Below, piece by piece: positions 30,212-49,563 of a stretch of DNA of 64,000 nucleotides (its first letter is position 1; each line of letters starts with the position of its first letter). Position numbers and translations under genes: made by a program. The DNA comes from Halorhabdus salina (GTDB taxonomy: Archaea; Halobacteriota; Halobacteria; Halobacteriales; Haloarculaceae), in the NCBI RefSeq assembly GCF_013839425.1, contig NZ_JACDNP010000004.1, positions 186,001 to 250,000 on the forward strand, read 5' to 3'. The notes beneath the pieces are model-generated. The model was not told where the DNA came from. It saw nothing but the letters and a program-made list of their open reading frames with translations, and made no database searches.

Positions 30212-30229
30212 ATGCCGCCTCCCAGATTT
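30212..30229. repeat. Left attachment site (attL), copy of tRNA-Phe 3' end
   Basis: ATGCCGCCTCCCAGATTT matches 60249-60266 (ATGCCGCCTCCCGGATTT) at 17 of 18 positions. The right copy spans the discriminator, 3' acceptor strand and T-stem of tRNA-Phe. Homology fades just after (CGACC versus GAACC). Confidence 0.85.
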
Positions 30230-30274
30230 CGACCGACAGTTCATATGCCCTGTGTTAGAACCCCTTACTCGAAC

Positions 30275-31549
30275 ATGACTGATTCGGTTGAAAGGATCGA
30301 TGCACTTCGAGAGCGGATCCAGACCTCGAACCGGATTTCTGAGGAGGATAAGAACGCTCTCATGACTTTTTCCAAGGAGATGGAGTTTCTCGATGCCCGG
30401 TACTCCGATGGGCGGCATATCAAGCTCCTCCAGCACTGTATCGTCCTCGCAGGCGATTCTCAGAAGTACAGTCGTGACGAGTTGCCAGACGTATCGCTTG
30501 TTACCACCTTCGATGATGAAGCAGCTGTCAAAGAAGTCGGTCGCTGGATCAAACGGAACTTCGATAATGAAGAGACGAAGCGTGACTATCGGGTCGCAGT
30601 TCGGATGTTCGGCGAGCATGCGGGAGAGGGTCAGGATATCCCAGCTCCAATCCAGCGACTCTCGGCGGGAACACCCCGAAACTATGACCCGAAACCAGAT
30701 CCAGCAAAGATGCTGTGGTGGAATGACCACATCCAGCCGATGATCGAGAGTGCAAACAGTCTTCGAGATAAGGCTGCTATCGCAGCTGCGTGGGATTCTG
30801 GTGCTCGAAGTGAGGAGTTTTGCTCCCTCAGAGTCGGAGACATCTCGGACCACAAGCACGGGATGAAGATTTCTGTCGACGGAAAACGAGGAGAGCGGTC
30901 TGTGCTCCTCGTTCCAAGTGTCACTCATATGCGTCAATGGCTGAATGTCCATCCCGCTGGGAACGACCCGACAGCACCTCTCTGGAGTAAGCTCAACTCG
31001 CCGGAAGAGATCTCGTATAAGATGAAACTCAAGATGCTGAAGAAGCCTGCCCGTCGAGCAGGCGTCGATCACACCGATATTACTTTTCGCCGGATGCGCA
31101 AGAGTAGTGCGTCCTACTTGGCGAACCAGAACGTCAACCAGACCCATCTTGAGAAGCACCACGGATGGACTCGCGGTTCCGATATCGCCTCCCGATATAT
31201 CGCTGTTTTCGGGGAAGCAAACGATCGAGAGATCGCCCGGGCTCACGGGGCGGACGTACAAGAAGAAGAGCACGAAAGAATCGCTCCGGTTTCCTGCCCA
31301 CGATGTCAGCGTGACACACCCAGAGATGAACCCCTCTGTGTTTGGTGCGGACAGGCGATGGAACAAGGCGTCGTAGAGGACTTGGAAACGGAACAGAGAC
31401 AGGCTAGGACCGAATTGCTCGCCATGGCTCAAGAGAACCCTGGACTGCTGGACGATATCGAGCGGCTGGAAAAAGTGATGGACTTCGTCGATTCTAACCC
31501 CAGTGTCATGCGGGATGCTCGCTCCTTCGTTGAAGCCACAAACGACTGA
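30275..31549 (+). CDS. Tyrosine recombinase / integrase of the element
   Basis: This 424-residue protein has a catalytic core at about 165-315: Arg-I in DSGARSEEF (Arg178), a possible Lys in SVDGKRGERS, the second Arg in TFRRMRK, HHGW (His box), and the tyrosine in IASRYIAVFG (Tyr308). The usual first His of HxxR appears replaced (ITFR). A zinc ribbon with two CxxC pairs (about 341-362) and a helical tail follow, as in integrases of haloarchaeal proviruses. ATG 30275 is chosen because upstream codons lie in the att region. Adjacent to attL. Confidence 0.85.
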   Translation: MTDSVERIDALRERIQTSNRISEEDKNALMTFSKEMEFLDARYSDGRHIKLLQHCIVLAGDSQKYSRDELPDVSLVTTFDDEAAVKEVGRWIKRNFDNEETKRDYRVAVRMFGEHAGEGQDIPAPIQRLSAGTPRNYDPKPDPAKMLWWNDHIQPMIESANSLRDKAAIAAAWDSGARSEEFCSLRVGDISDHKHGMKISVDGKRGERSVLLVPSVTHMRQWLNVHPAGNDPTAPLWSKLNSPEEISYKMKLKMLKKPARRAGVDHTDITFRRMRKSSASYLANQNVNQTHLEKHHGWTRGSDIASRYIAVFGEANDREIARAHGADVQEEEHERIAPVSCPRCQRDTPRDEPLCVWCGQAMEQGVVEDLETEQRQARTELLAMAQENPGLLDDIERLEKVMDFVDSNPSVMRDARSFVEATND

Positions 31550-32793: not shown

Positions 32794-33096
32794 ATGGCAC
32801 TCACGCGAGAGATGGAGTTACGAATCAAAGGACACCTTCACGAGATCAGACAGGCAAATGACCAAGCCATTGGTAGTCGGCAAGGCTTTCCACCTGCTAT
32901 TTCGGGTTATAGTCACACGCTTGAAAGTGTAGCAAAATGCGCGACCGCAGAGGAAGTTGATCAGATTGCTAAATTTATCAAGTCACGAATTAGGACAGAG
33001 AAGGAGCGACCGCGGAATAGGAAAGTTAGGCGAGAAGCTCGTTCAATCGTCTCTCAAAGTGGATACCCAGCAGACGAATTCTTGAATACAGCATAG
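32794..33096 (+). CDS. Hypothetical protein
   Basis: This 100-residue protein (MALTREMELRIKGHLHEIRQANDQ...) is predicted all-helical, with a basic middle (RIRTEKERPRNRKVRREA). A TATA-like ATTTAAAC lies about 33 bp upstream. No family recognised. It lies directly before the AGOG-like glycosylase gene (27 bp from stop to the chosen ATG), so the two may be co-transcribed. Confidence 0.55.
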   Translation: MALTREMELRIKGHLHEIRQANDQAIGSRQGFPPAISGYSHTLESVAKCATAEEVDQIAKFIKSRIRTEKERPRNRKVRREARSIVSQSGYPADEFLNTA

Positions 33097-33123: not shown

Positions 33124-33960
33124 ATGAATCACGACCGAATTGATTCTGTGGCTACAGCTCTAGCTGGAATTGGATACGATGGAATCGTCGCTTTCGATCG
33201 AGCCGAGCCCGAGTTCGGCACGATCGAGAAATTGTTCGAAGAGTTCGATTCAGATGATTATGTTCAGTTGCTTGTCGTACTCGCGACGACACAAGACTAC
33301 CAACTCAATGGCGACGCGCAACGATTTTGGAACGAATTCGAACAAACGGCCCTTACATACGATACTCTGACGAGCAAACAAACCGTTCGCGAGATTCTCG
33401 GCGATTTCATGGATGCAGATGTCAACGCACGTCTGAACCAACAAAAGCGAGACCGGCTTCTTTGTCTGTTTGAATCTGATTTCGATGAGTGGTTCCTCGA
33501 TAATCACCAGCAGGCAACACCTGAGGTCGTCTGGAAAGAACTGGCCGACGGGCTCAACACCGACATGACAGCGAAGACTGTCGCTCTTTCGATGAAGGTG
33601 TACGATAACGCTCATCTCATCCAACACGGTGAATATCGGGAGTTTCCGCCAGACATCCCGATTCCATGTGACTTGCAAGTCAAACGGGTTTCAAGAACGT
33701 CGGGCGTTACCACCGACGACGACACCGAGCGAGTCCTTCAAGTCTGGAATGAGGTCATGGACGCGACGAGCGAGCAACTCGGTCGACACGTCTCCATCTT
33801 CCGGATCGACAGTATTGTTTGGCAAGCAGGCCAGATTATCGGCGAGCACGAACCGGACGCCCGAGCTGCAAGGAACGCTTTGGTCGAGCACTTTGAGGAT
33901 GTCGGACTTGCGAATAATGAGGCAAGCCCACTTGCACGTGAATTGACGGCGGAAATGTAG
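33124..33960 (+). CDS. AGOG-like DNA glycosylase/lyase (HhH, 8-oxoguanine type)
   Basis: This 278-residue protein resembles archaeal GO glycosylase in its core: AKTVALSMKVYDNA (Lys151) and DIPIPCDLQV (Asp183), then SRTSGV. The Lys-to-Asp distance of 32 residues equals that recalled for the catalytic Lys140/Asp172 of Pyrobaculum AGOG. AGOG removes 8-oxoguanine and nicks the strand. ATG 33124 is preferred; a GTG at 33097 touches the upstream stop. Sitting on a defence element and facing a nuclease/DUF6884 pair, it may act on modified bases of invaders rather than in repair. Confidence 0.7.
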   Translation: MNHDRIDSVATALAGIGYDGIVAFDRAEPEFGTIEKLFEEFDSDDYVQLLVVLATTQDYQLNGDAQRFWNEFEQTALTYDTLTSKQTVREILGDFMDADVNARLNQQKRDRLLCLFESDFDEWFLDNHQQATPEVVWKELADGLNTDMTAKTVALSMKVYDNAHLIQHGEYREFPPDIPIPCDLQVKRVSRTSGVTTDDDTERVLQVWNEVMDATSEQLGRHVSIFRIDSIVWQAGQIIGEHEPDARAARNALVEHFEDVGLANNEASPLARELTAEM

Positions 33961-33965
33961 CAGGT

Positions 33966-34394
33966 CTAACTCCGCTCGTTGTACCAGGACAGTTTCTCGC
34001 CGATTCGCATACCCTCCGTCGGGATTTCGACAGTCACGTCGGTATCTTCGAGCCGTGGGAGCAGTTCCCCGTAGTAATCCCGGCCTGCATGGATGACTAA
34101 TCGAACTCCGTCGGTCAGAACCCCCCGCTCGTCAAGTTCATTGAAGACGTTATCTGCCCACTCTCGCTTTTCCTCTATTGACGCGTTAGCGAGCGTTCGC
34201 TCGTAGGGCTCGATTGGATCTCCATCAGGCTCTATCAAGCCATGTTTCGCCGAGAGGATGTACCACCCATCATGATGTTGCTCGGCGTAGGACCGCATCT
34301 TCTCGAAATATGCCGACGTGTAGAGATCCTTCGGCACCGTCGATTCGTCTCGCTTGCTCTTGACGCAACTGACGAGTCCAATTTCCTGAGTCAT
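33966..34394 (-). CDS. DUF6884 domain protein
   Basis: This 142-residue protein starts IGLVSCVKSKRDE, with DLYTSAYFEKMRSYAE, WYILSAKHGLIEPD and a C-terminal RLVIHAGRDYYGELLP. This is the DUF6884 pattern: a small alpha/beta domain with a conserved Cys-Lys near the N-terminus and a SAKHGL motif. Function is not established; the domain is common beside restriction-type genes. Its start overlaps the stop of the nuclease gene (ATGA). Confidence 0.75.
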   Translation of the reverse strand: MTQEIGLVSCVKSKRDESTVPKDLYTSAYFEKMRSYAEQHHDGWYILSAKHGLIEPDGDPIEPYERTLANASIEEKREWADNVFNELDERGVLTDGVRLVIHAGRDYYGELLPRLEDTDVTVEIPTEGMRIGEKLSWYNERS

Positions 34395-34942
34395 TGATCG
34401 TTGGTTCTTTCGGAAGTGGTTTCTACGGATTCGGTCTCACTCGGGTATTGCCAGACAAAGAGCGGTAGTGAGAATTCAAAATAGTTCGATAATACCGCAC
34501 GAACATCGCTCCTCGTTCGTTCTAACGTCGGGAAGCTCACGTGCGAGGGGATTAGTAACACACCTACATCGATATCCTCGTGACCCGAAAATCCAGAGGG
34601 ATCACGGTACGCAGCTTCCATCTTCATGAGGTGCCAATTCGCCCGCATCTGTTCCCCGCGCTCATGCTCAACTAGGACCCCATCCTTGTACACGTCAAAG
34701 TTCCCTCGTCGGGAAATAGTGCCAGTCGAATCAGGCACCTCGAAAGTAGCCGTGACTCCCTGCTCCCAACCCAGCGGATCTAGCAATTCGCCTCGCGCAG
34801 CCATATTTTGGTTCCCACCACCGTGTTTATGATACGCAGTGGCAATCGTAGTTAACTCATTCAGTAGTCCCTTTTCTTTGAGAATTTGTCTACCACCTCG
34901 AAATGACCAGGTGTCTTGTGATTGGGGGTCTGTCGTCATCAT
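34391..34942 (-). CDS. BglII/BstYI-like restriction endonuclease (PD-(D/E)xK-type)
   Basis: This 183-residue protein has a strand-acid pattern NFDVYKDGVLVEHERGEQMRAN, with Asp about ten residues before E-H-E. This matches the D-x(8-9)-E-x-(Q/E) active site of the BglII family. A downstream strand DVGVLLIPSHV (about residue 133-143) completes the core. Length is close to BstYI/BglII. It is translationally coupled with DUF6884. There is no dedicated methyltransferase next to it; the nearest are 3-4 kb away. Confidence 0.65.
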   Translation of the reverse strand: MMTTDPQSQDTWSFRGGRQILKEKGLLNELTTIATAYHKHGGGNQNMAARGELLDPLGWEQGVTATFEVPDSTGTISRRGNFDVYKDGVLVEHERGEQMRANWHLMKMEAAYRDPSGFSGHEDIDVGVLLIPSHVSFPTLERTRSDVRAVLSNYFEFSLPLFVWQYPSETESVETTSERTNDQ

Positions 34943-37539: not shown

Positions 37540-38808
37540 CTACTCTAAGAGATCTTCCTGGATACTCCATCCGATTACTTCAGCAAGTAACGGTGGAACA
37601 GCATTTCCCACGAGCCGGAAGTTATTAACGAGTGATGCTTTGAATCGATAGGTATCTGGGAAGGACTGGAGTCGCGCAGCCTCACGGACAGTAAGCGATC
37701 TGGCCTCACGAGGGTGGATGAACATGTGACCATCCTTTTCGAGATGTGCGATGATAGTGGACGCAGGTTCACGCGGGTTCTGTTTCTTGTACTTATCTGG
37801 GAATATGTCATCTCGGTATGGCTGGAGGTGTTGGCTAATTTCGTCGATGTTCCAGCCCGCCCCCTCTCCAAGGAGTTTGTAGATGGTGAGATCCAGCATA
37901 TTGTGTCCGCGACAGGTATGGTTATGAAGCGAAATCTCGCTCCAGTCATCGACACCGTCCCTGTTCCGGGCCCATTCCTGATACTCGGTCACGGGCGGAA
38001 TAGTGTAGTTATCAGCCGTTTTCGGGGGAGTTTCACCCTCCGGGCTTACAGGTGGTAGATCAAGAATTGCCTCACCGACAGTGATCCAGGGTTCTCGCCC
38101 CGAACGAGGATCCTCTTGCGCACCGCCACCATACTCAGACATCGTCGCCTGAGGCGTGGAACGGAAGGCAGAGGGATCGCGACGGACAGTCATCTCGGTT
38201 TCTGTCTCTCTCACCGGTTCCCGGTGAGTCGCTCGGTTCTCGAGATCAGGGTTTGGCTGGTCGAGCCGGTTACCGATGAAGAAAATGCGGTTCCGGTGCT
38301 GAGGAACGCCGTAATCTGCGGCATCCAAGTGGTAGACGGTCGTCTGATACCCGGCCTCCTTGCTCTGGCGTTTTATTTCCTCAATGATGCTCTCGCGAAG
38401 GGTACCCGAGGCAGATTCCATGTTCGCAACATTCTCCATCAGAAATACAGGGGGTTTGATCGACTGAACAAACCTGAAAAAGTCCTCAAACAGATAGTGC
38501 CGATCATCCGTCGCCACTGTCTGTCCATCCAGGGAATCAATCTTGCTTCGACCGATCCGGGAAAAGGTCGGACAGGGAGGACCACCAGCAATTAGATCAA
38601 TGTTATCTTGGTCGACGGGAGCGTCCTCCGAGTCAAGTTTGCGAATATCGGCGATATCGAGTTCGCCCGTGTGATTCTCAGAGTATGTCTCCTCGACGTC
38701 TGGGTCATTATCTACGGCCCAGAGAACATCGAACCCGGCCCACTCTAGACCGGTAGACAGGCCGCCAGCACCGGAAAAGAGGTCAATTGCCTTCGGCGTC
38801 TCGGTCAT
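37540..38808 (-). CDS. Cytosine-C5 DNA methyltransferase
   Basis: This 422-residue Dcm-type enzyme shows motif I AIDLFSGAGGLSTG, motif IV GGPPCPTFSRIGRS (catalytic Cys near residue 79), motif VI MENVANM, motif VIII PQHRNRIFFIG, and C-terminal motifs IX-X (REPASTIIAHLEKDG, RSLTVREAARLQSFPD, NAVPPLLAEVIG). A target-recognition region lies between about 190 and 320. It follows the fusion methyltransferase gene by 56 bp on the same strand, so the pair is probably one transcript. Confidence 0.93.
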   Translation of the reverse strand: MTETPKAIDLFSGAGGLSTGLEWAGFDVLWAVDNDPDVEETYSENHTGELDIADIRKLDSEDAPVDQDNIDLIAGGPPCPTFSRIGRSKIDSLDGQTVATDDRHYLFEDFFRFVQSIKPPVFLMENVANMESASGTLRESIIEEIKRQSKEAGYQTTVYHLDAADYGVPQHRNRIFFIGNRLDQPNPDLENRATHREPVRETETEMTVRRDPSAFRSTPQATMSEYGGGAQEDPRSGREPWITVGEAILDLPPVSPEGETPPKTADNYTIPPVTEYQEWARNRDGVDDWSEISLHNHTCRGHNMLDLTIYKLLGEGAGWNIDEISQHLQPYRDDIFPDKYKKQNPREPASTIIAHLEKDGHMFIHPREARSLTVREAARLQSFPDTYRFKASLVNNFRLVGNAVPPLLAEVIGWSIQEDLLE

Positions 38809-38864
38809 ACGATATCTAGGTTTGTGAGCGAGAAAGAAGTATCTCTACATCCCGCCAAGGTGTG

Positions 38865-41126
38865 TCAGTCGTCCGTACTTGCCCGACTTGCCCGGGCCTG
38901 AGTAGTCGCCATCTCTGAAATGCCTTTTTCGGCAAGATACTCTTGGACGGTGAGTGCGATGCGTTCCCCGAGATGGGGCGGAATCGCGTTTCCGATCTGG
39001 CGGAACCAGCTGGTAAAGGCGCCAAGGAAAATGTAGTCATCCGGGAATGACTGAATACGTGCCGCCTCTCGTGGAGTGATCCCCCGGTTTCGACGAGTAT
39101 CTGGCTCGCCGGAAGCCGTATCCACGTGTTCGTAATAGTCGGGAAGAACAAATCCGTTGGCGTCCTTCGCAAGATGGGCTACGATTGTCGGCGACGGCTC
39201 ATCCCAGCATAGCATACGGTACTTGTCCCTGAAGCGGGGGTTCTCCTCGGTTCCGACGTCATATTCAATCAAATTGCTATACTCGCCGTCCTTGTCGTAT
39301 TTCACGTCCCATCCCGTATCACCAGGCTCCAGTGCTTCGTCAAATAGCGTCTGGTCTTTTTGCATCGGGTGTTCCCGTGCCCGGTGGTTAAAGCAGAGAT
39401 CTGTTCCGTCATCGAGGTCAACCTGAGAGACATACTGACTTCGCGATCCAGGCGGGGTGCCAGTAACGACTCTCCCTCCTTCGCCTCGTTTGAGCCTAGG
39501 GAGACCAGAGAGTGCCTGCTGGAGGTCGTAGTTACCAGCCGGGAGAATATTGGAAAGACGGTCGAACATTTCATCAAGATCTGCGCGATCCGTTGCAAGG
39601 TCCTCTCGGACGCCAAGAATGATGACCCTCTCGCGTTTTTGTGGAATGCCAAAGTCGGAGCAATCAAGCAGCCTGTAATCACAGACGTAGCCCGAGTCAG
39701 CACCACCAATCGACTCCAACGAATCAAGAACTAAATCTCCGACTTTGATACCTGTGTCTTTGACCTCGTTAACCATGCCCTCGACGTTCTCCATTACCAG
39801 TACCTTGGGTCGTAACTCTTCGACAAACTTGACGTACTGGGTGTACAGGGACGTTCGAGCGTCCTCAAGGATGCTGTAATCGTCGTCATTGGCCCGACGA
39901 GTACGGTAGCCTGCTTGCGAGAGGGATTGACATGGCGGGCCACCTACGACAATGTCAGGAGTGCGTTCAAGATCCTCGACCGCTCCCGACCCGATGGCAT
40001 TTCGAATATCATCACAGACGATATTTTTGTGAGGGATTTCAGGGTGGTTAAGCCGATAGGTGTCCGTCGCATCTTGGTCGTTGTCAATCGCCCAGTCAAT
40101 ACTACAGCCGGCTCGATCGAATCCGAGTGAGATACCACCAGCACCAGAAAATAGGTCGATCACGACAGGACCATCCTGTTGTTGTGACTGCTTTCGAAGT
40201 CGATGTGAAAGCAGGAACTTCCTGATTTCGCAGTGTTCACCGCAGACATCTATGTCGCCCTTGATAGCGTGCCCTGCAAGAGCTCGATGAAGAGGTGCTA
40301 GCTGGCGATCGGTTAGCCGCCCCTCAAGTTTTGTTCGACGCTCAGCACTATCCTTGAATCGGCTCTGGTCCAGCAATCCTAGTGAGCAGAGTATACCATC
40401 AACAAACGGTCCAGCAGGCCAAACTGGCTTGTCGAAAGCAACGAGAAGAAGCCACCATGCATCTGAACGGGATACTCCGGGGAAACTGGTAAGCAAGTCA
40501 CGGAATGCGCTGTACTGCATTCCATGAATCCCCTCAAGGGTAACCCCATCCGTCTTTGAACAGTCCGCAACGGATTCGAGCAATGCCTCCAACCGGTCAA
40601 CTCGCTGCTCACCGATTCCCGGCCTCGTCGTCGCTTCTGCGAGTTCTCTTTCCAGATCATCCCTGGATAGAGCGGCAATTTCGTCCCAGGCTCCCATCAT
40701 GCGCTTTATTCGGGCAATCAATTCCCGTTCTTCATGGTCGAAGTAGCGCTGTCCGGGGGTTCTATTATCACGGGCTATTGCGACTGCGGCCACAGTATCA
40801 AGCGGATCATCGCTATCAGACAGTGGATCACCGCAATCACATGCAGAATCTGAGTCCGTCGACACACATGCAGTAGTGAGGTTTCGATAACGACAAGGGT
40901 ATTTCTCTCCCCCCCTCCGTCGTCGGGCAAGGCTCTCGGACGATGACGTCGGGCAGCCCGTGGGATGGTACCAGTGCTGGTGGTACTGTTCTGCCGTCAG
41001 AACGTCTATAAGAAAGTCAACATGACGAAATACAAATTCTCGGTGCAGTTCTAATTCGTCATCAGGTGCTTCCGACAACACCGCGGGAAGAGATAGTGAG
41101 TCAGTATCCGCACCCCGACCAGTCAT
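38865..41126 (-). CDS. Fusion: degenerate HhH-GPD (EndoIII-like) domain plus cytosine-C5 methyltransferase
   Basis: In this 753-residue protein, residues about 315-750 are a complete C5 methyltransferase: DLFSGAGGISLG, GGPPCQSLSQAG (Cys near 397), MENVEGM, PQKRERVIILG, and a NAIPPHLGERIA end. Residues about 135-310 resemble the EndoIII fold: helix-hairpin-helix FPGVSRSDAWWLLL (about 213-226), then PAGPFVDGILCSLGLL where EndoIII has VDTHVxRVxNRLGL. The catalytic Lys and Asp are replaced (Ser and Gly) and the iron-sulfur Cys set is incomplete. A Cys-rich segment precedes it (about 55-105). ATG 41126 is preferred: CTTTATG upstream fits a TATA box. Confidence 0.8.
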   Translation of the reverse strand: MTGRGADTDSLSLPAVLSEAPDDELELHREFVFRHVDFLIDVLTAEQYHQHWYHPTGCPTSSSESLARRRRGGEKYPCRYRNLTTACVSTDSDSACDCGDPLSDSDDPLDTVAAVAIARDNRTPGQRYFDHEERELIARIKRMMGAWDEIAALSRDDLERELAEATTRPGIGEQRVDRLEALLESVADCSKTDGVTLEGIHGMQYSAFRDLLTSFPGVSRSDAWWLLLVAFDKPVWPAGPFVDGILCSLGLLDQSRFKDSAERRTKLEGRLTDRQLAPLHRALAGHAIKGDIDVCGEHCEIRKFLLSHRLRKQSQQQDGPVVIDLFSGAGGISLGFDRAGCSIDWAIDNDQDATDTYRLNHPEIPHKNIVCDDIRNAIGSGAVEDLERTPDIVVGGPPCQSLSQAGYRTRRANDDDYSILEDARTSLYTQYVKFVEELRPKVLVMENVEGMVNEVKDTGIKVGDLVLDSLESIGGADSGYVCDYRLLDCSDFGIPQKRERVIILGVREDLATDRADLDEMFDRLSNILPAGNYDLQQALSGLPRLKRGEGGRVVTGTPPGSRSQYVSQVDLDDGTDLCFNHRAREHPMQKDQTLFDEALEPGDTGWDVKYDKDGEYSNLIEYDVGTEENPRFRDKYRMLCWDEPSPTIVAHLAKDANGFVLPDYYEHVDTASGEPDTRRNRGITPREAARIQSFPDDYIFLGAFTSWFRQIGNAIPPHLGERIALTVQEYLAEKGISEMATTQARASRASTDD

Positions 41127-41304
41127 GTCTCCCTGTAGGTAACCCAGCACATAAAGCCCCAGGACTTAGTCGTAACTGAATACCTTATTCACAGCTATGA
41201 GAGCGCGTATAGGGTATCTGGGAGTGATAATTGGCCTATTTCCTCGGCAACTTGGATAGCTACGGTACTCAGGATTATTACGCTAGCGCGTTGAGAACGG
41301 TACA

Positions 41305-42087
41305 GTGGGAAACGTGAAGCTGCCTTTCGGACGTACCCAGGTTTCGGCAGATGAAATTTCAGAGCTTGTCAGGGTTAACAGGGCGTCACAGCTGCTTCAC
41401 GAGAGCGGAAAAACAGACAGCGAAGACCAGATACGGTCGTTCATTCAGACTGTTCCAGACCTTCTCGGCTGGCTTGAACAACACGGCCGAGAATTCCCTT
41501 GGAGGTATACTACTGACCCCTGGCGTGTATATGTATCTGAGATATTGTTACAGCGGACTCGTGGTGATGCAGTAGCGGGTATCTACGACGAGTTCTTCAG
41601 CCAGTTCCCGGACCCAGAGACTCTGAATCGCGCAGACGAGAAGGATATTCATGACGCAGTATCGTCACTCGGGTTCGGGAATCAGCGAACACGAACGTTA
41701 CAGGAGGTCGCCGAACTTTGCCACTGTGAATATGGTGGAGATGTCCCAAAGGATCTTGAGGCACTCAAACAATCTTGGCGAGTCGGACCATACTCGGCTC
41801 GTGCCTGTCTACTGTTTGCTTGCGCTGAACCATACGCTCTCGTTGATGCTAATGTCGCACGGGTGATCGGGAGGGTCCTAGATTATGAAATGCCGACTCA
41901 GCCACACAAAAGCAAAACCGTGTATGAGCTCATGGAATGCCTAGTTCCAGACGACCCGGAAATCGCTCGGGCATTCAATCTGGCTTTCCTCGACCTTGGA
42001 GCATTGATCTGTACACCCGATGAGCCACAGTGCCCGTCCTGTCCGCTCGAAGACTGTTGTGCCTTTGCAGCTACCAGACTTGGATAG
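41305..42087 (+). CDS. MutY/Mig.Mth-like HhH-GPD G:T mismatch DNA glycosylase
   Basis: This 260-residue protein has FPWRYTTDPWRVYVSEILLQRT, HhH with VGPYSARACLL (Tyr163), the catalytic Asp in ALVDANVARVIGR (Asp181), and a C-terminal [4Fe-4S] set C236-x6-C243-x2-C246-x5-C252. The Tyr-Asp pair and LLQRT match the thymine-DNA glycosylase Mig.Mth, which accompanies a C5 methyltransferase on a methanogen plasmid. It starts at GTG 41305; no in-frame ATG exists near. Divergent from the fusion methyltransferase, 178 bp between starts. Confidence 0.85.
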   Translation: MGNVKLPFGRTQVSADEISELVRVNRASQLLHESGKTDSEDQIRSFIQTVPDLLGWLEQHGREFPWRYTTDPWRVYVSEILLQRTRGDAVAGIYDEFFSQFPDPETLNRADEKDIHDAVSSLGFGNQRTRTLQEVAELCHCEYGGDVPKDLEALKQSWRVGPYSARACLLFACAEPYALVDANVARVIGRVLDYEMPTQPHKSKTVYELMECLVPDDPEIARAFNLAFLDLGALICTPDEPQCPSCPLEDCCAFAATRLG

Positions 42088-42548: not shown

Positions 42549-43490
42549 TTAGCCCATCCGAATCTCTTGCGAACCTGTGGACGCGAGGAGGAACTCGATA
42601 AGCTTCCGGAAATTGGTGACTTCGGGGCCCTTGATCAGGACTCCTGTTTCGAGATAATGCTCGAATCCGTAGTCGGTCACATTCGCACTGCCGACATAAA
42701 CCGAGGAATCGTCAAACGCCATCACTTTCGCGTGAAGGGTGAATGCTGGGTTGTCACCTTCCTGTTTTCGGGCCTCATCAGGCGTTTCTTCACTCCACCC
42801 AGTATAGTCGATTAAATGGAGGCTTTCGGTGCTTACACCGTCATCCTGCACGTTGTCAGCGAAGTCCGAAAGGACCTGCCGGTTGTAGGACTCTTGATCC
42901 CTGAGATACCGAGAGACGATTGTTACTTGGACGCCACGGTCTAGTGCAGCAATCAGAACATCCTGCAATCGTTCGAAACCTTCGCGTTCGAAGAAAGGCG
43001 AGAGCAGTACGATCGAGTCCGTGCAGCGTTTAATTTCTCGAGTGAGTGTGGGCATCAACCAAGACATCCCGAAATCAGAGGGACTGACCTCGCGAAAGCC
43101 GGGATCAGCGGGGAAGGTCACAAGTGGCCTAACAGTCGTTTCAGGAGGTCCTTGAGACTCAAAAACGGTGATGGCCTTTCCCGCGTGTCGAGCCGCTGTG
43201 AGCACTTCTCGACAGCGTTTGGCATCGACTGCATAGTGACTGTCTGCAATTGAGCCGCTGAATGAATCCCGATCAAGTACACCAGTTTGCTCAAGATGGC
43301 GAAACAGATCAGTGGCAGCCTCTTCGTCAATATCTGTCTCCCGTGCAAGTCCAACCGGAGAGAGCGTAGTATCCTTGCCCGCAGCAGCCAAGAGGATACC
43401 CTCAACCTGGGTGAGGAGTCCTGCATCACGGTTGACCAGATCAGCGATCGAGAGGGGCGTCCACATACCGTTAGCTGATTCAGACGTCAT
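42549..43490 (-). CDS. drmC: DISARM protein DrmC (phospholipase D-like)
   Basis: This 313-residue protein has a winged-helix-like N-terminal region (about 15-80) and a PLD nuclease/phosphodiesterase domain. One full HxK(x4)D(x6)GSxN motif is seen in HAKVMAFDDSSVYVGSANVT near residues 252-271. An earlier strand SIVLLSPFFEREG may stand in for the first half. Position directly after drmB and drmA identifies it. Known DISARM work found drmC dispensable in one class 2 system. Confidence 0.88.
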   Translation of the reverse strand: MTSESANGMWTPLSIADLVNRDAGLLTQVEGILLAAAGKDTTLSPVGLARETDIDEEAATDLFRHLEQTGVLDRDSFSGSIADSHYAVDAKRCREVLTAARHAGKAITVFESQGPPETTVRPLVTFPADPGFREVSPSDFGMSWLMPTLTREIKRCTDSIVLLSPFFEREGFERLQDVLIAALDRGVQVTIVSRYLRDQESYNRQVLSDFADNVQDDGVSTESLHLIDYTGWSEETPDEARKQEGDNPAFTLHAKVMAFDDSSVYVGSANVTDYGFEHYLETGVLIKGPEVTNFRKLIEFLLASTGSQEIRMG

Positions 43491-43541
43491 ATTGTTGTCC
43501 CAATGATATAATATCCATGTGCTGATTTGTTTCCCGTTACC

Positions 43542-45494
43542 CTATACTTTCCAGTAGCCAGTAATAGTACGGTCTGTGTTCGGCCGGCTGCCGAACAGAT
43601 AGTCCCGAGAGATCACCTGGTTGAAATACGAACAGCTAATCTCACTCACGTGTAGACACGACAGACAGGCCCCTCCTCGCTGTGAGCACACCGGGTCGTA
43701 AACACAATCGTTTCCATGAGATTCTGCCTGGCCAAGCAGATTGTCTAACTGTTGCTCGACCATGGTGGTCATGCCACCGATATTGAACTCTTCCCGGTTA
43801 TTGGCGTAGATGACCAGCGACAGTGCTCGCGGGAAAAGGAACTCGCTGAGGTTTGTTCGGTCGAAACCGCTGATAGTGCTGGCCTGCTTCAGCAGGATAT
43901 GACTCGTCGTGTGAAGTAATTTGAATACGTGCTCGGTTATCTGTCCCTCGACATCATCACCGGCGTCGGTTTCGAATCGCCCGTATCCTTCCACAGGCGC
44001 AAGGTGGCTAATGATGAATCCCCACTGCTCGTCTTGTGATAGCTGGCTAATATCGCTCCGGGCATGCTCAAGAGCAGCCTCATCAGTGCTATCAATCTGC
44101 GGCAGAGTGGTCGACCCGTTCACTTCATCTGGGTCGCTGGTCTCGGGGATGTTTAGCGCCAGCCAGAGCAATACACGTTCGGGGTCAAGATCAAACTGGA
44201 CAGCTTCGGTCTCAGATGTATCGACGAAGATGGGTGTCCCATCCCCATCACTTGCGTTCTGTGAGAATGCATTGATCTTGGCTTCATCCTCATCGCGGCC
44301 ACCACGGGTATATCCATAGACGAACGTCTGCACGGGGAAGTCTTCGATCACTCTGACATCTTGTATACCAAGACGATCGAGGTCGTCCTGGTAGGTGCTA
44401 ATACGGTCAGCCTTTTCCGTGAATCCACGGGTACGCGACTGCTGTTCCAGATCGGACAGGGAGTCCGTCGTCAGGTCCTCCCTGCTGAGGACATACTGCA
44501 GGATCTCGTCACCAGCGTCGGTCAGTTCCGACTGGTCGCCATCACTTTCGAGGGAGATTACCTCAGCAAGACGTTCTCGAACGGTCTGACTGTCAATTTC
44601 TCCACGTTCTTTCAGGTGTTCTCGGGCCTCATCGAGGCTCGTAATATTATCATTCGCCTGGAAAACCTCGACGACCTTCGCGTCGTCCACCTCGACCTCA
44701 CCGACTCGCTCACGGAGGGTAACCTCTTCTACGGATTCAGCGTCGGACAGACCGAAGTGCTGGGCGAACGCTTTTCTCGCCCCATCCTCGCTCTGTCTGA
44801 GATGGCCAATTCCTGCCGAATGAAGATTGACGGTGGTGATGTAGTGCGGGTAGTAGACACTCCCCGCCCGGTGAACAGTCGTGTACATCCCGTCGTTCTC
44901 ATCGCCAGCGGGCGGAGTATACTCACACCCGCAGTTCTGAAAATTCCGCATCGGCGTTTCCCAGCCACAGCCATCGACCTCGCAGCTCCAGTGGAAATTC
45001 CGAACTCGCTGGCTATCCCGCCGGTCGAGAACGACATGTCTGTCGCCGTGGTTGGGACATGACTGAGGATAGAGACGTCTGATCTCTCCGCAGCTGTGAA
45101 CGCTCACAAACTGGTACTGCTTGAGGTCACCACCACACCGATCGCAGGTCAGGTCAGGATTCTGGCTTTCCAGATCGTCCGCCGAGTAGTATCCGTGCGC
45201 TTTCTCGCAGTTCTGGCACTCGAAGGTCGTTGGGAACGGCTGTGACCGAACGCCCTTCGGCTCACCGAAGTGGTAGTGGTCGGGATTCGATGACGCGAAC
45301 CCTGCCTGGCCCCCTTCCCAGTTTCGTACTCGTGCAAGTACCCGGGAAAGGATGTAATCACGGCTAATTTGACCACTGACGTCGCTCGTTTCAAGTCGAG
45401 TCACCTGCCAGATTCCGCGCTGATCGCTGTAGTCGAACGTGTTTTCTGGCAGGAACTGATACAGTACCTGTGACCGACTTCGTTCCATTGACAT
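43542..45494 (-). CDS. drmB: DISARM protein DrmB (DUF1998)
   Basis: This 650-residue protein has N-terminal zinc-binding CxxC pairs (CQNCEKAH, CDRCGGDL), further Cys pairs around 150-190, and the DUF1998 C-terminal region. The latter has SHILLKQASTISGFD, LVIYANNREEFNIGGM, and a Cys cluster VCSQRGGACLSCLHVSEISC near residues 600-622. It starts 2 bp after drmA ends. DrmA and DrmB form the DNA-loading complex of DISARM. Confidence 0.9.
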   Translation of the reverse strand: MSMERSRSQVLYQFLPENTFDYSDQRGIWQVTRLETSDVSGQISRDYILSRVLARVRNWEGGQAGFASSNPDHYHFGEPKGVRSQPFPTTFECQNCEKAHGYYSADDLESQNPDLTCDRCGGDLKQYQFVSVHSCGEIRRLYPQSCPNHGDRHVVLDRRDSQRVRNFHWSCEVDGCGWETPMRNFQNCGCEYTPPAGDENDGMYTTVHRAGSVYYPHYITTVNLHSAGIGHLRQSEDGARKAFAQHFGLSDAESVEEVTLRERVGEVEVDDAKVVEVFQANDNITSLDEAREHLKERGEIDSQTVRERLAEVISLESDGDQSELTDAGDEILQYVLSREDLTTDSLSDLEQQSRTRGFTEKADRISTYQDDLDRLGIQDVRVIEDFPVQTFVYGYTRGGRDEDEAKINAFSQNASDGDGTPIFVDTSETEAVQFDLDPERVLLWLALNIPETSDPDEVNGSTTLPQIDSTDEAALEHARSDISQLSQDEQWGFIISHLAPVEGYGRFETDAGDDVEGQITEHVFKLLHTTSHILLKQASTISGFDRTNLSEFLFPRALSLVIYANNREEFNIGGMTTMVEQQLDNLLGQAESHGNDCVYDPVCSQRGGACLSCLHVSEISCSYFNQVISRDYLFGSRPNTDRTITGYWKV

Positions 45495-45496
45495 TG

Positions 45497-48400
45497 TTAT
45501 GACTGGTTCTCAAGGGTATCGAGGAGGTCCCGGTACTTGTACTCCGATCGGATGGGTAGCTGTTCATCGACGTCACGAAGGCTACGCATAGCACCCCGTG
45601 GAAGTCGATTACTGGCCCACTGCTGATCGTCAAGCTGGATCTGTGAAATTGATAGGTTGGTTAGCTCTTTGGCATCGTGACTGAACTCTTCGGGTACCTC
45701 ATCACCGCCATACATGCGGGTGATCAGGTCTTCCAGTTCTTGGTCATCGACTTCTGCGAGGAAGTCTTCGGCGCTATCGCCAAAGAACAGTTTCTCTGAA
45801 CCGTCACGGTACATGTAGTGGTTCAGAAGCAGACTCATGAACAGCCCCGGGTGAGTACGCTGAACGCCGTTTTTCGCCCATCGATTGACCGATACTGGTT
45901 CGACGAGGCGATCGAGGAACTGGTGGTACTTCTCGAAGAAGTGGTAGTGGCTCAAGTCGCGTTCACGGATTGGATGGAAGACGTTGAACACTAGTCCCGG
46001 GTGAAAGCGCCCTGCCCGTGAGCTGGACTGGATATACTCAGCAGTCTGACGTGGCATTCCGAAGAACACCATCATGTTAAACCGCTCGACGTCGACGCCG
46101 TGGCTGATCATGCTCGTCGCAGTGATGGTGTTGAGACGACTCGCGAGCAGCCAGGCAAGACCCTCTCGAACGGCTTCGTCAGCCTGTCTGAGGGCGACAC
46201 GGAACTCATCGCTCTCGACGTCGGACGCGTCGTCGAGACTGGCTTCTAGGGTGTCTCGCAAGTCCATGATCGCATCCTGTGTTTCGGGTGGAAGGACGTC
46301 GTCGTCGACCAGAGATTGCAGGATGCCTCTGTCTTCATCCTCTTGCCAGGGATTGTCCAGTAGGTCAAGGATGTCCTGGACCTTCTCGAAAGGGGTCCCG
46401 CCAGTCATTCGCTCAGACGCGAGCGGCGGTCGATCGTCACGTCGCAGATACGCGTTGAGCTGACTGACAATGGACTGGTCAAGGCGATCGCCGTCTTTCT
46501 TTGAGAGCAGGTACGTCAGGCTTGTACTGTAGAGGGTGAGCGTTTGTAGAACCTCGTCGATGGAGTTGGCGTTCAGCGGTGCACTGGTATCTGTTCCTTC
46601 GAGTGCGACACCAGTAAGAAGGTCTTCCGGTGACTCCATCGCCGTCGTCATCAGGTCTTGCACCTCCTTGTGAAAATAGAATAGAATGTCGATGATCGAG
46701 TTAATATGCGTCTTGCCGTGCGGTATGAGGCCGATGTAATATCGCTGGCTCTCTGCCTGCTCCTGTGCGTAGAAGTTCTCGCGTAGATACGGGCCCGGTG
46801 CTGGGAACCGTTCAGCTGGTCGCAGGAACAGGTGATAGACCTGATCCTCGTAAGCGGTAATCGTCGCCGTCGGAGCGATGATCTTTGTCTGACCAGCGTC
46901 GACGAGTTCTTGCAGGGTATCGATGCCGGTTTCGTAGTGACCATCGAAGCTACCAACACTCTCCTCAAGCAGGTGAAGCTCGTCGGGGACCATCAACGAG
47001 GGGGCAGGATCGTAGACCTCGATGGGAGAGGCCATCAACTCGAACTCGTCCCTGTCGATGTCACACCCGTATTTCTCGGTGCACTCGCCGAGACTGGCGA
47101 ACCCGTGAATCGGGCATTCGTATTCCATCTCGCCCGTGAGGATGTGCGCCATCTTCCGCTGGTAGCCGATGGCAGTGATCTTGTCGATGGTTCCCGCGAG
47201 GATGGTTGGCGCGTATCGGTAGAGTTCGTTATCGACGACGTGTACGGGAAGTTCGTCTTCAGCGTACGTCTCATCGGCTGTCGTCTCCCGGCTTTGCCAG
47301 TCACAGTCGAAGGGATTGCCAGTACAGACGTGTGCGAGTCGAATATCGTCAGTAACTCGCATCTCGATGTCTGACCCACAGGCCGGACAGGATGGAATGA
47401 CCTTGGCGTCCTCTCGCAGTTTGGGGTCGTCCTGATACCGGCTGAAGTTATCATTATCGTATCCGGTCAGTGCGTTCGGTGTGTTGGCCTTGCCGACAAG
47501 GAAGCCGACGCTGAACGGCCTCGATGGACGGGACCCGATCTCGGGTTGTTCGCGGCGTACGACATCGGCGTACACCACAGTCTCCGACATGCGCTGAAGC
47601 TGCTGGAGAGAGAGTAGCCGTAGCGGGAAGCGAGTCCACGCGGCCACGCCGAAGTGCTTGCCCCGAATCCTGTCGAAGAACATGTTCCAGACTGCGACGC
47701 CGAGGAATGCTTCGGTTTTGCCACCACCGGTGGGGAACCAGAGCACGTCGACGACGTCGAGAGCCCCATCTGCGTCTTGGAACCGTTCGGTCATCTCATC
47801 GCCATCCCGCCAGCTGATGTCCTCCCAGCCCTCGTGCTCGCGACTGGCAATGTCAGGGACCAGCATCACGATGAAGACCAGCTGGAAAAGCCTCCAAGAG
47901 TCGAAGCCGTGCATCCGGTCCATCGTCTCGTTCATCAGCTCGAATGCTCGGCCGACGCTCTCAGGGTGGTCGCGAAGACAGCGAATACCGCGTTCGAATC
48001 GCCGAATTTCTCGGAGGAACGCCTTGCGGTCCTCCATGAAGTCCTGCTCATCGCGCCCGTCAGCGTCCCAGTCTTCACGTTCTCGGTACTGCTCGAGCGC
48101 AGTATCGTAGGCCTCCTGGTGATAGTCGCGCATCGCCTGTGCGACGGCATCCAGTACCTCGAACCCGCCGTCGTCGAGACTGGACAGTTCGTTGAAAGAG
48201 GTCTCGACGTCGCGATCGGCCGATTCGTAGACGAGCTGCCGGTGCTCGGGGATGAACTGTGTCTGCAAGTGGTTAGCAGTCGGGTTAGCCTGGGGCGCTC
48301 GCCGTCCAGGCGTCCGACCATTTCGTATCGTTTCCTCCTGACCGGGGACGCGGATCGTGCAGTTGCGACCGTGGCCCCAGAGATCTCGGTTATATCGGAA

Positions 48401-49336
48401 GTCTTCGGGGAGTGGATCGAACGTGAAGGGGACGAATTCGACGTCCCCCTCCGTCCGGAGGTCCAGCTGGACCTCGAAGAAAGTAGGGTCACGAATGGTG
48501 TATATCGCATCCCGCTTGGAGTGATCAGCAGTATTCTCGAATTCGACGTCGACGATGAGCTGGTCGTCGCGGTCGGATTCGCGGTCCAGCGAGGTGGTTA
48601 GTTCAAGAGAGCCGTTCCAGTGAGGAATGGCCGGTTCACCTTCTCGCTCTTCGAGATAGTCCTCGTAGGCCTCTTCGTCCGCAAGGGCGCTGTGGGGGAC
48701 ATCGTCGTCAGGATGTTCGTCACCGGGGTCGAGGTAGATGTCCTCGCGGGCCTGTGCTTGGGCCTGTACGTCCTCGAACGCCTCGGTCAGCGCTTCCGTG
48801 GCTCGCTCACGAACTACTTCGGGAGTTTCGCGGGCCGGGCCCGAAAGAGCCTCGTAGGGGATCTTGACAGGAGGAACGTCGAGATTGAACCGCTCGAAAA
48901 CGGGCAGGAGGTCAGTTTCAGCCTCCTCTTCTTCCTCGCGATCGCCGAGAGTGACGAAATTGTCACGGTTATTCATCTCCTCGTAGGTCGGGTTGACCCG
49001 AACCCAGACGCTCCCGCTAATTTCGACGACGAGCTCGTCTCCAGGGCCACCACCACGAACCTTGACGGTTGAACCAACGGCGTTTGGTTCCATCTTTGAC
49101 TGGAGGTCGTCATCTGTGGTTTCCAGTTGGTTCTCGCTCCTAGGAGAAAGTGCACCAGCAAAGAACCGATCACTGGGGAAATCCCGTTTCACGCGGTCAT
49201 CTTCGCCGGCTCGTCGGCCACTCACACGGTCAAGAATCCGTTTTCGGAGATGTCGTGCTATTCGCTCGTCATCGTCTGGAGGTCCTGTCCCACCCGATAT
49301 TGCGTCCCCCGCGGGCTGTGGTTGCTGACCTGACAT
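45497..49336 (-). CDS. drmA: DISARM helicase DrmA
   Basis: This 1279-residue protein has an acidic N-terminal region (1-480), SF2 helicase Walker A LWFPTGGGKTEAFLG near residues 530-541, and a Cys4 insertion (CPACGSD...CTGNPFDC). The DExH box variant PDELHLLEE is near 783, and motif VI-like SSSRAGRFHPGLVF near 1110. Length and order fit DrmA of class 1 DISARM. First gene of the leftward drmABC unit; its start region lies in a divergent promoter shared with drmMI. Confidence 0.92.
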   Translation of the reverse strand: MSGQQPQPAGDAISGGTGPPDDDERIARHLRKRILDRVSGRRAGEDDRVKRDFPSDRFFAGALSPRSENQLETTDDDLQSKMEPNAVGSTVKVRGGGPGDELVVEISGSVWVRVNPTYEEMNNRDNFVTLGDREEEEEAETDLLPVFERFNLDVPPVKIPYEALSGPARETPEVVRERATEALTEAFEDVQAQAQAREDIYLDPGDEHPDDDVPHSALADEEAYEDYLEEREGEPAIPHWNGSLELTTSLDRESDRDDQLIVDVEFENTADHSKRDAIYTIRDPTFFEVQLDLRTEGDVEFVPFTFDPLPEDFRYNRDLWGHGRNCTIRVPGQEETIRNGRTPGRRAPQANPTANHLQTQFIPEHRQLVYESADRDVETSFNELSSLDDGGFEVLDAVAQAMRDYHQEAYDTALEQYREREDWDADGRDEQDFMEDRKAFLREIRRFERGIRCLRDHPESVGRAFELMNETMDRMHGFDSWRLFQLVFIVMLVPDIASREHEGWEDISWRDGDEMTERFQDADGALDVVDVLWFPTGGGKTEAFLGVAVWNMFFDRIRGKHFGVAAWTRFPLRLLSLQQLQRMSETVVYADVVRREQPEIGSRPSRPFSVGFLVGKANTPNALTGYDNDNFSRYQDDPKLREDAKVIPSCPACGSDIEMRVTDDIRLAHVCTGNPFDCDWQSRETTADETYAEDELPVHVVDNELYRYAPTILAGTIDKITAIGYQRKMAHILTGEMEYECPIHGFASLGECTEKYGCDIDRDEFELMASPIEVYDPAPSLMVPDELHLLEESVGSFDGHYETGIDTLQELVDAGQTKIIAPTATITAYEDQVYHLFLRPAERFPAPGPYLRENFYAQEQAESQRYYIGLIPHGKTHINSIIDILFYFHKEVQDLMTTAMESPEDLLTGVALEGTDTSAPLNANSIDEVLQTLTLYSTSLTYLLSKKDGDRLDQSIVSQLNAYLRRDDRPPLASERMTGGTPFEKVQDILDLLDNPWQEDEDRGILQSLVDDDVLPPETQDAIMDLRDTLEASLDDASDVESDEFRVALRQADEAVREGLAWLLASRLNTITATSMISHGVDVERFNMMVFFGMPRQTAEYIQSSSRAGRFHPGLVFNVFHPIRERDLSHYHFFEKYHQFLDRLVEPVSVNRWAKNGVQRTHPGLFMSLLLNHYMYRDGSEKLFFGDSAEDFLAEVDDQELEDLITRMYGGDEVPEEFSHDAKELTNLSISQIQLDDQQWASNRLPRGAMRSLRDVDEQLPIRSEYKYRDLLDTLENQS

Positions 49337-49563
49337 CGACGTGACCAGACCAACGCCCTTATTTTATAAAAATGTTGTCGGGCGTTGGTCTGGCTGGTCA
49401 TTCGCGCGGGTGAGCGCATGGTCACGCTCGCCCGCGTTCGCGAGCACGAACGCGTGAGGCGGATGTTCGTCCACAAACCATTATATGATGGGGGTGGTTC
49501 AGGGAAACATATCAACGGACGGAGCCACTTTGCCCCCAGGCACCGACCACTTACGTTCAAATC
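49337..49563. promoter_or_regulatory. Divergent DISARM promoter with three palindromes
   Basis: The 227-bp gap between drmA and drmMI holds CCAGACCAACGCCC (49345-49358) and its perfect complement (49380-49393) around an ATTTTATAAAAA box. It also holds CGCGGGTGAGCG/CGCTCGCCCGCG (49405-49436, one mismatch) and CGCGTTCG/CGAACGCG (49433-49454), which shares bases with the previous arm. A TATA-like ATTATATGATG (49488-49498) lies about 70 bp before the drmMI ATG. The palindromes are operator candidates or hairpins. Confidence 0.75.

What the first reader, a model, noticed from the sequence alone, without database searches (positions are those of the whole stretch)
33124..34942. Possible new defence cassette: BglII-like nuclease, DUF6884 and AGOG-like glycosylase
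Seen: a nuclease-like gene overlaps a DUF6884 gene (ATGA); the adjacent convergent gene has AGOG Lys151/Asp183 with the 32-residue spacing of the known pair. No cognate methyltransferase adjoins the nuclease. Known: glycosylases can serve in antiviral defence by removing modified bases. Inference: the glycosylase and nuclease act together on base-modified viral DNA.
Basis: partly seen in the sequence, partly recalled or inferred. Interest (0 to 1): 0.7.

Follow-up and report, generated by a model that had tools for sequence, protein, structure and literature searches.

The report
Mobile archaeal glycosylase–DUF6884 defence cassette
A salt-loving archaeon carries, on a stretch of DNA rich in antiviral genes, an altered base-removing enzyme paired with a protein whose viral relatives often sit beside a gene for making modified guanines, so the pair may be a little-known defence that attacks viruses with modified DNA.

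Summary
The three genes are real and placed as described. The named trio does not recur: among 391 haloarchaeal genomes the AGOG-like and BglII-like genes (10 and 13 genomes) meet only here. The glycosylase–DUF6884 pair does recur: DUF6884 lies within 3.5 kb of AGOG in 7 of 10 haloarchaeal genomes, overlaps or abuts it in another archaeal family, and is fused to it in two proteins. One haloarchaeon has an overlapping operon AGOG–PD-(D/E)XK-like–DUF6884, so the architecture (glycosylase, DUF6884, exchangeable nuclease) stands although the nuclease family changes. These AGOGs are patchy and not housekeeping copies. In 22 of 22 full non-canonical AGOGs aligned, the glutamine that reads guanine N7 is glutamate. 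A CARF regulator lies near 11 of 29. DUF6884 is PADLOC candidate PDC-M57A. In viruses, a DpdA-like 7-deazaguanine transglycosylase lies within 2 kb of it in 27 of 57 non-redundant loci. Best reading: a modular cassette against DNA with modified guanine, probably 7-deazaguanine. The pairing is firm, the defence role likely, the substrate inferred. The main rival is a mobile DNA-repair pair.

The parts
33124..33960 (+). AGOG-like N-glycosylase/AP lyase (278 aa), E30 in place of the N7-reading glutamine; Lys151 and Asp183 kept
   Evidence: PF09171 over cut-off; pocket mapped on Pab-AGOG
33966..34394 (-). DUF6884 protein (142 aa), YaaA-like fold, CxxxK and LSAxxG motifs; PADLOC PDC-M57A
   Evidence: PF21818 E=5e-43; PDC-M57A 2.1e-36 and weak DpdC 3e-4; model pLDDT 96.8, YaaA 5caj Z 9.5
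34391..34942 (-). BglII-like putative nuclease (183 aa), D83-x8-E92-x-E94; overlaps DUF6884 by 4 nt
   Evidence: family in 13 of 391 genomes
32794..33096 (+). small protein (100 aa) 27 nt upstream of AGOG, same strand; relatives found in two other loci, both with DUF6884 (L083, L124)
   Evidence: tblastn over 112 host loci including the window
30212..31549 (+). tyrosine integrase near the likely edge of the island
   Evidence: PF00589 1.6e-13; G+C of 4-kb blocks falls to 50-57% from 60-64%

Best explanation
AGOG and DUF6884 form one functional unit, joined in this genome by a BglII-like nuclease. SHOWN: the pair recurs, overlaps and fuses; it is patchy among haloarchaea; the slot beside DUF6884 is filled by different putative nuclease families. 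INFERRED: it is a mobile defence cassette against foreign DNA carrying modified guanine, most likely 7-deazaguanine derivatives such as those of haloviruses. DUF6884 (YaaA-like fold, conserved Cys and Lys) would bind, flip or chemically process the modified guanine. The AGOG, with glutamate at the position that reads N7, would excise it and nick the strand by its lyase activity. The linked nuclease would turn nicks or AP sites into breaks. Related loci use a GIY-YIG-type or another PD-(D/E)XK-like protein instead, and many AGOG loci carry a CARF regulator that may switch the unit on during infection.
For: Pairing: DUF6884 within 3.5 kb of AGOG in 7 of 10 haloarchaeal genomes with a full AGOG (L123 dropped as a near-copy of L027), against 0 of 10 genomes fetched for the BglII-like gene outside the window (Fisher outside the window, 6/9 vs 0/10, P=0.003). 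In a second family, f15, 10 of 12 AGOG loci have DUF6884 and the other two are cut by contig ends. Fusions over both Pfam cut-offs: L269 and L277. Nuclease: L124 is AGOG, PD-(D/E)XK-like, DUF6884 with 4-nt overlaps. Of 57 further DUF6884 loci taken by score, 41 have one of the recurrent modules (putative nucleases, AGOG-like) within 300 nt. Not housekeeping: only AGOG in its genome, 10 of 391 genomes, 70 bits against an equivalog cut-off of 240. Pocket: E in 22 of 22 non-canonical rows, Q in the canonical L262; the glutamine reads N7-H (PMC9638937, passages). 7-deazaguanine: DpdA-like gene in 27 of 57 non-redundant viral DUF6884 loci, 17 hits within 300 nt, none at 2-5 kb; HRTV-29 and phiFN37; dpdC carries DUF6884 (PMC11888242, passages); HVTV-1 has about 30% of G as dPreQ1 (PMC6884629, passages). 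Regulation: CARF-wHTH in 11 of 29 AGOG loci against 1 of 57. Setting: DISARM-like genes in the same island.
Against: No experiment. A glutamate could still accept the N7-H of 8-oxoguanine, so the change does not exclude ordinary repair. The glycosidic bond of 7-deazaguanines is hard to break (recalled), so excision may be chemically difficult. Pfam reports that a DUF6884 member, YfjM, was found among interactors of abasic and RNA-base lesions (PMC11701544, passages), which fits repair. 3 of 10 haloarchaeal AGOGs lack nearby DUF6884, as do L272, L275 and L276 of other families although they also have E. At genome level DUF6884 is not enriched with AGOG (8 of 10 genomes against 225 of 391, P=0.13); only the neighbourhood is. 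The trio with this nuclease is seen once. No CARF gene lies near the window AGOG. The AGOG tree is poorly resolved and shows little clear transfer between host families, so mobility rests on patchiness and the island. 5 of 7 phages whose neighbourhood I read had no DpdA beside DUF6884, by annotation or by tblastn with two DpdA queries.
Confidence: 0.5

Rival explanations
1. A mobile DNA-repair pair. AGOG removes an oxidised or otherwise damaged guanine and leaves an AP site; DUF6884 binds the lesion or AP site and helps processing. The island context is incidental.
For: Catalytic residues and most of the 8-oxoguanine pocket are kept. YaaA belongs to the oxidative-stress response, and YfjM is reported among interactors of abasic and RNA-base lesions (PMC11701544, passages).
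Against: Present in only 10 of 391 haloarchaeal genomes; DUF6884 partners are putative nucleases; DUF6884 is linked to DpdA in viruses; N7 reader changed in 22 of 22 non-canonical rows.
Confidence: 0.27
2. Two independent cargo modules placed side by side: a BglII-like nuclease-DUF6884 operon and an unrelated AGOG, brought together by island shuffling.
For: AGOG is convergent with DUF6884 here, and among 391 genomes the BglII-like family meets AGOG only here.
Against: AGOG-DUF6884 fusions and 4-nt overlaps and 7 of 10 haloarchaeal genomes show that the two belong together; only the nuclease is optional.
Confidence: 0.1
3. A self-modification system: DUF6884 modifies the host's own 7-deazaguanine marks and AGOG edits them, with the nuclease restricting unmarked DNA, as in dpd islands.
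For: dpdC carries DUF6884 (PMC11888242, passages); PADLOC gives the window DUF6884 a weak DpdC match.
Against: No DpdA-like gene in the AGOG loci scanned (home-made profile); DpdA-like genes lay near DUF6884 in 5 of 57 host loci, of a divergent DUF6884 subgroup.
Confidence: 0.08

Closest known systems
PADLOC candidate PDC-M57 (PDC-M57A + PDC-M57B)
   Same: The window DUF6884 matches PDC-M57A; the C4 partner, within 300 nt in 15 of 66 DUF6884 loci, matches PDC-M57B (one representative scanned).
   Different: No PDC-M57B-type gene found here; AGOG and a BglII-like protein stand in its place, and neither has a PADLOC match at E 0.01.
Brig1 (antiviral DNA glycosylase)
   Same: A DNA glycosylase in defence islands acting on modified viral bases (PMC11078745, passages read).
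   Different: Brig1 resembles uracil-DNA glycosylases, acts on alpha-glucosyl-hmC and has insignificant lyase activity; here the AGOG family, a guanine-reading pocket and the lyase lysine.
AGOG 8-oxoguanine glycosylases (Pae-AGOG, Pab-AGOG)
   Same: Family, catalytic Lys and Asp, most of the pocket.
   Different: N7-reading Gln replaced by Glu; far below equivalog cut-offs; patchy; paired or fused with DUF6884.
dpd islands, DpdC
   Same: DUF6884 domain and a link to 7-deazaguanine DNA (PMC11888242, passages).
   Different: No DpdA-like gene found beside the AGOG cassettes; other Dpd genes were not searched for.
Type IV (modification-dependent) restriction
   Same: Would work the same way if the model holds.
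   Different: Base excision plus an exchangeable nuclease rather than one nuclease with a modified-base reader; untested.

Membership tests
AGOG (PF09171) | Profile match over the curated cut-off | tested here: met
   96.8 bits against 26.1
AGOG (PF09171) | Catalytic Lys and Asp 32 residues apart | tested here: met
   K151/D183 aligned to solved AGOGs; invariant in the 10 aligned
Housekeeping 8-oxoguanine AGOG (NCBIfam equivalogs) | Equivalog score cut-off | tested here: not met
   70.3 against 240; 59.9 against 383; 55.7 against 368; 33.3 against 474
Housekeeping 8-oxoguanine AGOG (NCBIfam equivalogs) | Strictly conserved Gln reading N7-H | tested here: not met
   E30 in the window; E in 22 of 22 non-canonical rows, Q in L262; role from PMC9638937, passages
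Housekeeping 8-oxoguanine AGOG (NCBIfam equivalogs) | Removes 8-oxoguanine | not testable with these tools
   needs an assay
DUF6884 (PF21818) / PDC-M57A | Profile match; CxxxK and LSAxxG motifs | tested here: met
   146.9 bits; PDC-M57A 2.1e-36; the window has both motifs. C10, K14, S48, A49 in 38 of 38 aligned, 35 of them viral (the ILSA stretch was also used to fetch viral rows, C and K were not). In 65 called host proteins CxxxK in 59 and the exact LSAxxG in 28
YaaA-like fold | Structural match to YaaA | tested here: met
   5caj Z 9.5, rmsd 3.0 over 131 of 142 residues; next 2q07 Z 8.7; the rest 6.4 or lower; Foldseek alone gave no match at E 0.001
DpdC | Profile match and dpd operon context | tested here: inconclusive
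   weak DpdC matches E 3e-4 and 4e-4; no DpdA-like ORF in the window by a home-made profile
BglII endonuclease (PF09195) | Curated cut-off | tested here: not met
   15.3 against 26; 2 of 9 members match at E 0.1
BglII endonuclease (PF09195) | Active-site pattern D-x8-E-x-Q/E (pattern recalled) | tested here: met
   D83-x8-E92-x-E94 invariant in 9 of 9 aligned
PDC-M57 system | PDC-M57B beside PDC-M57A | tested here: not met
   no C4 (PDC-M57B-type) hit beside the window DUF6884; AGOG and nuclease have no PADLOC match

The most novel reading that the evidence does not exclude
A previously undescribed archaeal base-excision immunity against 7-deazaguanine DNA: an OGG-type glycosylase whose N7-reading glutamine has become glutamate, so that it can hold a positively charged 7-substituent (preQ1 or archaeosine), works with or is fused to a DUF6884 protein recruited from the 7-deazaguanine modification pathway. 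Exchangeable nucleases finish the job, and CARF regulators link the unit to cyclic-nucleotide signalling.
Probability: 0.28. Interest if true: 0.9.

Novelty: new variant of a known kind. Interest (0 to 1): 0.72.

Why it matters
HVTV-1 replaces about 30% of its guanines with dPreQ1, and its DNA resisted every restriction enzyme tested on it (PMC6884629, passages). If this cassette targets such DNA it would be a counter to that shield, and it would give DUF6884 a testable partner and substrate class. It would also show a repair glycosylase family turned to defence through a change in its base-reading pocket, and it predicts which residue to swap in the test.

Tried and rejected
Rejected: the trio as one family-for-family system. 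Rejected: AGOG as a housekeeping copy. Rejected: detectable homology of the BglII-like protein with the C11 nuclease-like family; profile comparison gives probability 0.2%.

Led nowhere: a single-sequence fold of the BglII-like protein, pLDDT 43.6; solved-structure searches with the BglII-like, C11 and C6 profiles; viral scans with AGOG, with the window DUF6884 alone and with the nuclease alone; AGOG in phage records, none; an att copy of the window's tRNA-Phe, none of 14 nt or more; literature on PDC-M57 (none) and on AGOG with CARF (none). The paper on ArcS gave no passage for the motif terms asked, so my recollection that AF0587 (2q07) is ArcS-like, and that ArcS has a PCx3K motif, stays recalled and carries no weight in the scores.

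Limits of counts: the gene caller is home-made (codon scores) and missed the BglII-like ORF, so presence of the main genes was also checked with tblastn or profiles. The module families were picked because they recurred in the first 40 of the 57 DUF6884 loci, so 41 of 57 is descriptive, not a test. Five window-type DUF6884 places beside AGOG were left out of the 57. Of 13 non-window BglII-like places I fetched 11 (G235 and G076 left out as weakest); its alignment leaves out L039 (short, with stops), L043 (fragment) and L044 (second copy in one genome). The C11 alignment leaves out the broken L141. In the phylum sample, four further weak AGOG-like places in f15 genomes (20-26 bits, fetched as L278-L281) gave no match to my AGOG profiles and no DUF6884, and two weak places with stops or short frames (G512, G562) were not fetched; none of the six is counted. 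The 36-aa AGOG relic of G048 was not followed. Rows too short at the N7 site (L268, L273, L274, L277) are not among the 22; the divergent C21 rows, also outside the 22, have E, E and T there. The viral set is the best 80 of 112. The DpdA and CARF profiles were built from loci of these same sets. GIY-YIG is supported by Pfam for C6 only (8 of 8 at E 0.5, best 5.4e-7; its representative is just under the cut-off); for C3 and C4 it is my reading of motifs, as is PD-(D/E)XK for C11 and C8.

Full report
WHAT IS THERE. The window is part of a haloarchaeal contig (G000:C20). A stretch of lower G+C (50-57% in 4-kb blocks from about 28 to 60 kb, against 60-64% outside) includes an integrase (30212-31549) and holds, in order, the AGOG-like gene, DUF6884, the BglII-like nuclease, two C5-cytosine methyltransferases, a MutY/Nth-like glycosylase and a DISARM-like set. 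The finding's coordinates and gene overlaps are correct. AGOG and DUF6884 converge with a 5-nt gap; DUF6884 and the nuclease overlap by 4 nt.

THE NAMED TRIO DOES NOT RECUR. In the same 391 haloarchaeal genomes, AGOG is found in 10 (8 over the Pfam cut-off) and the BglII-like protein in 13. Only the window genome has both; 0.33 were expected and P of at least one is 0.29. In 11 fetched BglII-like loci (10 genomes, of 13 places outside the window) none has DUF6884.

AGOG AND DUF6884 DO BELONG TOGETHER. Ten distinct haloarchaeal genomes carry a full AGOG of this type: the window, G264, G281, G246, G337, G058, G148, G408, G453 and Haladaptatus litoreus (the Natribaculum longum plasmid was dropped because it is 97% the same as G246). 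DUF6884 lies within 3.5 kb in 7 of the 10: directly beside AGOG in the window, G281, G337 and G453, one gene away in G408, 2.7 kb away in G264, and 1.9 kb away in H. litoreus, where it is a divergent member (28% identical). It is absent near AGOG in G246, G058 and G148; in G148 AGOG is instead convergent with a GIY-YIG-type protein on an 8-kb contig. On the class sample alone (4 of 7), chance is below 1e-7 for random placing and 2e-4 at an assumed 5% background. Mere presence in the genome is not enriched: 8 of 10 AGOG genomes have DUF6884 against 225 of 391 (P=0.13). A divergent AGOG-like family (C21) also adjoins DUF6884 in 2 of 4 loci, one of which (L080) was found through DUF6884. A 64-aa AGOG relic lies 31 nt from DUF6884 in L082.

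FUSIONS. A phylum-wide sample of 294 genomes adds AGOGs from three other families. In family f15, 10 of 12 loci with a profile-confirmed AGOG have DUF6884; in the other two (L270, L271) the contig ends beside the AGOG stop. Four have 4-nt overlaps (L264, L265, L267, L268). Two are fusions over both Pfam cut-offs: L269 is DUF7664 + AGOG + DUF6884 in 554 aa, and L277 is AGOG + DUF6884. L274 has AGOG plus a YaaA-like end just below cut-off; L273 is a broken copy. Three loci of families f16 and f21 have AGOG without DUF6884 (L272, L275, L276). The one canonical AGOG (L262, 253 bits) has no DUF6884. Four weak AGOG-like places in f15 genomes (L278-L281) did not match my AGOG profiles, have no DUF6884 and are not counted.

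A NUCLEASE SLOT. I fetched 57 loci with a window-type DUF6884 (123 bits or more) that do not lie beside an AGOG found. In 41 of 57, one of eight module families lies within 300 nt: GIY-YIG-type C3, C4 or C6 in 31, the putative nuclease C8 in 8, C11 in 7 (in each with a GIY-YIG-type gene), C21 and the AGOG relic in one each. The families were chosen because they recurred in part of this set, so this describes rather than tests. C4 is PADLOC PDC-M57B, and the window DUF6884 is PDC-M57A. C11 keeps D74-x12-E87-x-K89 in 7 of 7 aligned and overlaps DUF6884 upstream in 4 of the first 6 loci, just where the BglII-like gene sits in the window. In L124, AGOG, C11 and DUF6884 form a three-gene operon with 4-nt overlaps. 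C11 and the BglII-like family are not detectably related.

THE GLYCOSYLASE IS ALTERED. Mapped on Pab-AGOG (PMC9638937, passages read), the window keeps W62, K142, K149, P172, D174, D208 and W212 but has E30 at Q24, and leucine at F146 (3 of 7 haloarchaeal rows there keep F). Q24 reads the N7-H that distinguishes 8-oxoguanine, and the paper reports loss of activity in the Q31S mutant of Pae-AGOG. In 22 of 22 non-canonical AGOGs aligned in full the residue is E; L262 has Q; three of the 22 (L272, L275, L276) also have F at W62. By my reading of the alignments, the five solved sequences have Q. Three divergent C21 rows have E, E and T. The window protein scores 70.3 against a 240 equivalog cut-off. 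In the tree, haloarchaeal AGOGs form one group (95/96) and its inner forks are mostly unresolved: one f4 row lies among f1 rows, the f3 rows group together. A glutamate could still accept N7-H, so this marks a different lineage but does not prove a new substrate.

THE 7-DEAZAGUANINE LINK. In HRTV-29 the DUF6884 protein, 44% identical to the window's, overlaps DpdA; in Fusobacterium phage phiFN37 it lies between a queuine tRNA-ribosyltransferase and a queuosine-precursor transporter. Five other phages read had no DpdA beside it, by annotation or tblastn. In 80 viral loci (the best 80 of 112), 31 have a DpdA-like gene, the nearest one on the same strand and within 2 kb in each. After removing near-copies it is 27 of 57, with 17 hits within 300 nt, 8 at 300-1000, 3 at 1000-2000 and none in 260 kb of flank at 2-5 kb. 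The DpdA profile was seeded by these two phages and widened within the set. Published: dpdC carries DUF6884 (PMC11888242, passages); HRTV-29 is suggested to modify its DNA through DpdA (PMC8651126, passages); HVTV-1 has about 30% of G as dPreQ1 (PMC6884629, passages). The AGOG loci scanned have no DpdA-like gene; five host DUF6884 loci of a divergent subgroup do. The DUF6884 model (pLDDT 96.8) matches YaaA best (Z 9.5), in line with Pfam's statement that the two are related (PMC11701544, passages); Foldseek alone gave no match at E 0.001.

REGULATION. A CARF-wHTH protein (HFX_2341_N/DUF6293_C; PADLOC CARF3) lies within 4 kb of AGOG in 11 of 29 loci (duplicate L123 and canonical L262 left out), against 1 of 57 DUF6884 loci and 1 of 11 BglII-like loci (Fisher P=1.3e-5 for the first comparison). 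None is near the window AGOG. The CARF profile was built from five of the AGOG loci, and the loci differ in length.

MECHANISM AND STATUS. Shown: pairing, fusion, patchiness, exchangeable putative nucleases, viral DpdA linkage of DUF6884, altered N7 reader. Inferred: mobility, defence, and the substrate. The main rival is a mobile repair pair. Chemistry is a real doubt, since 7-deazaguanine glycosidic bonds are stable (recalled). DUF6884 occurs in 2 papers of the library, seen as passages, none of which speaks of AGOG; PDC-M57 occurs in none; AGOG with CARF in none; AGOG with archaea, phage and glycosylase in one, on trypanosomatids. A search for 7-deazaguanine with restriction, glycosylase, defense and excision gave 8 papers; in the one I opened, on base-excision restriction, AGOG does not occur (PMC10273834, passages). 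I found no description of this unit in those searches.

Noticed in passing
window 42549-56641: DISARM-like set: DrmC, DrmB, DrmA, DrmMI-like (type IIG-like) and an SNF2 helicase that scores higher as BrxHII/HmaA than as DrmD.
   Followed up: partly
window 37540-42087: Two C5-cytosine methyltransferases, the second with a long N-terminal part, next to a MutY/Nth-like glycosylase below its equivalog cut-offs; this recalls thymine-mismatch glycosylases kept beside cytosine methyltransferases (recalled).
   Followed up: no
window 56660-57634: Protein with weak PADLOC matches to PD-Lambda-3_B and Aga_HEPN.
   Followed up: no
L079: A C11-DUF6884-C4 cassette beside a DUF7386 gene 87% identical to the window's over 92 aa, a C5 methyltransferase hit and a DrmC-like hit (about 30% identity each): a parallel of the window's island order.
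   Followed up: partly
L034 9721-10221 and L040 9685-10170: BglII-like nuclease directly beside the same second gene (cluster C26, DUF429-like by my reading) in two genomes, a possible other partner.
   Followed up: no
L034 11665-12447 and L043 3-1022: DpdA-like ORFs in two BglII-like nuclease loci.
   Followed up: no
L263, L265, L268, L269, L273: A lipoprotein-like gene with a shared N-terminal pattern recurs near AGOG in family f15; one member scanned matches DUF4352.
   Followed up: no
L149 3174-4499: Rhodococcus plasmid DUF6884 in a 441-aa protein close to type I restriction genes.
   Followed up: no
L152 1620-3926: DUF262-HNH (GmrSD-like by recollection) gene directly upstream of DUF6884 in Halalkalicoccus.
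   Followed up: no
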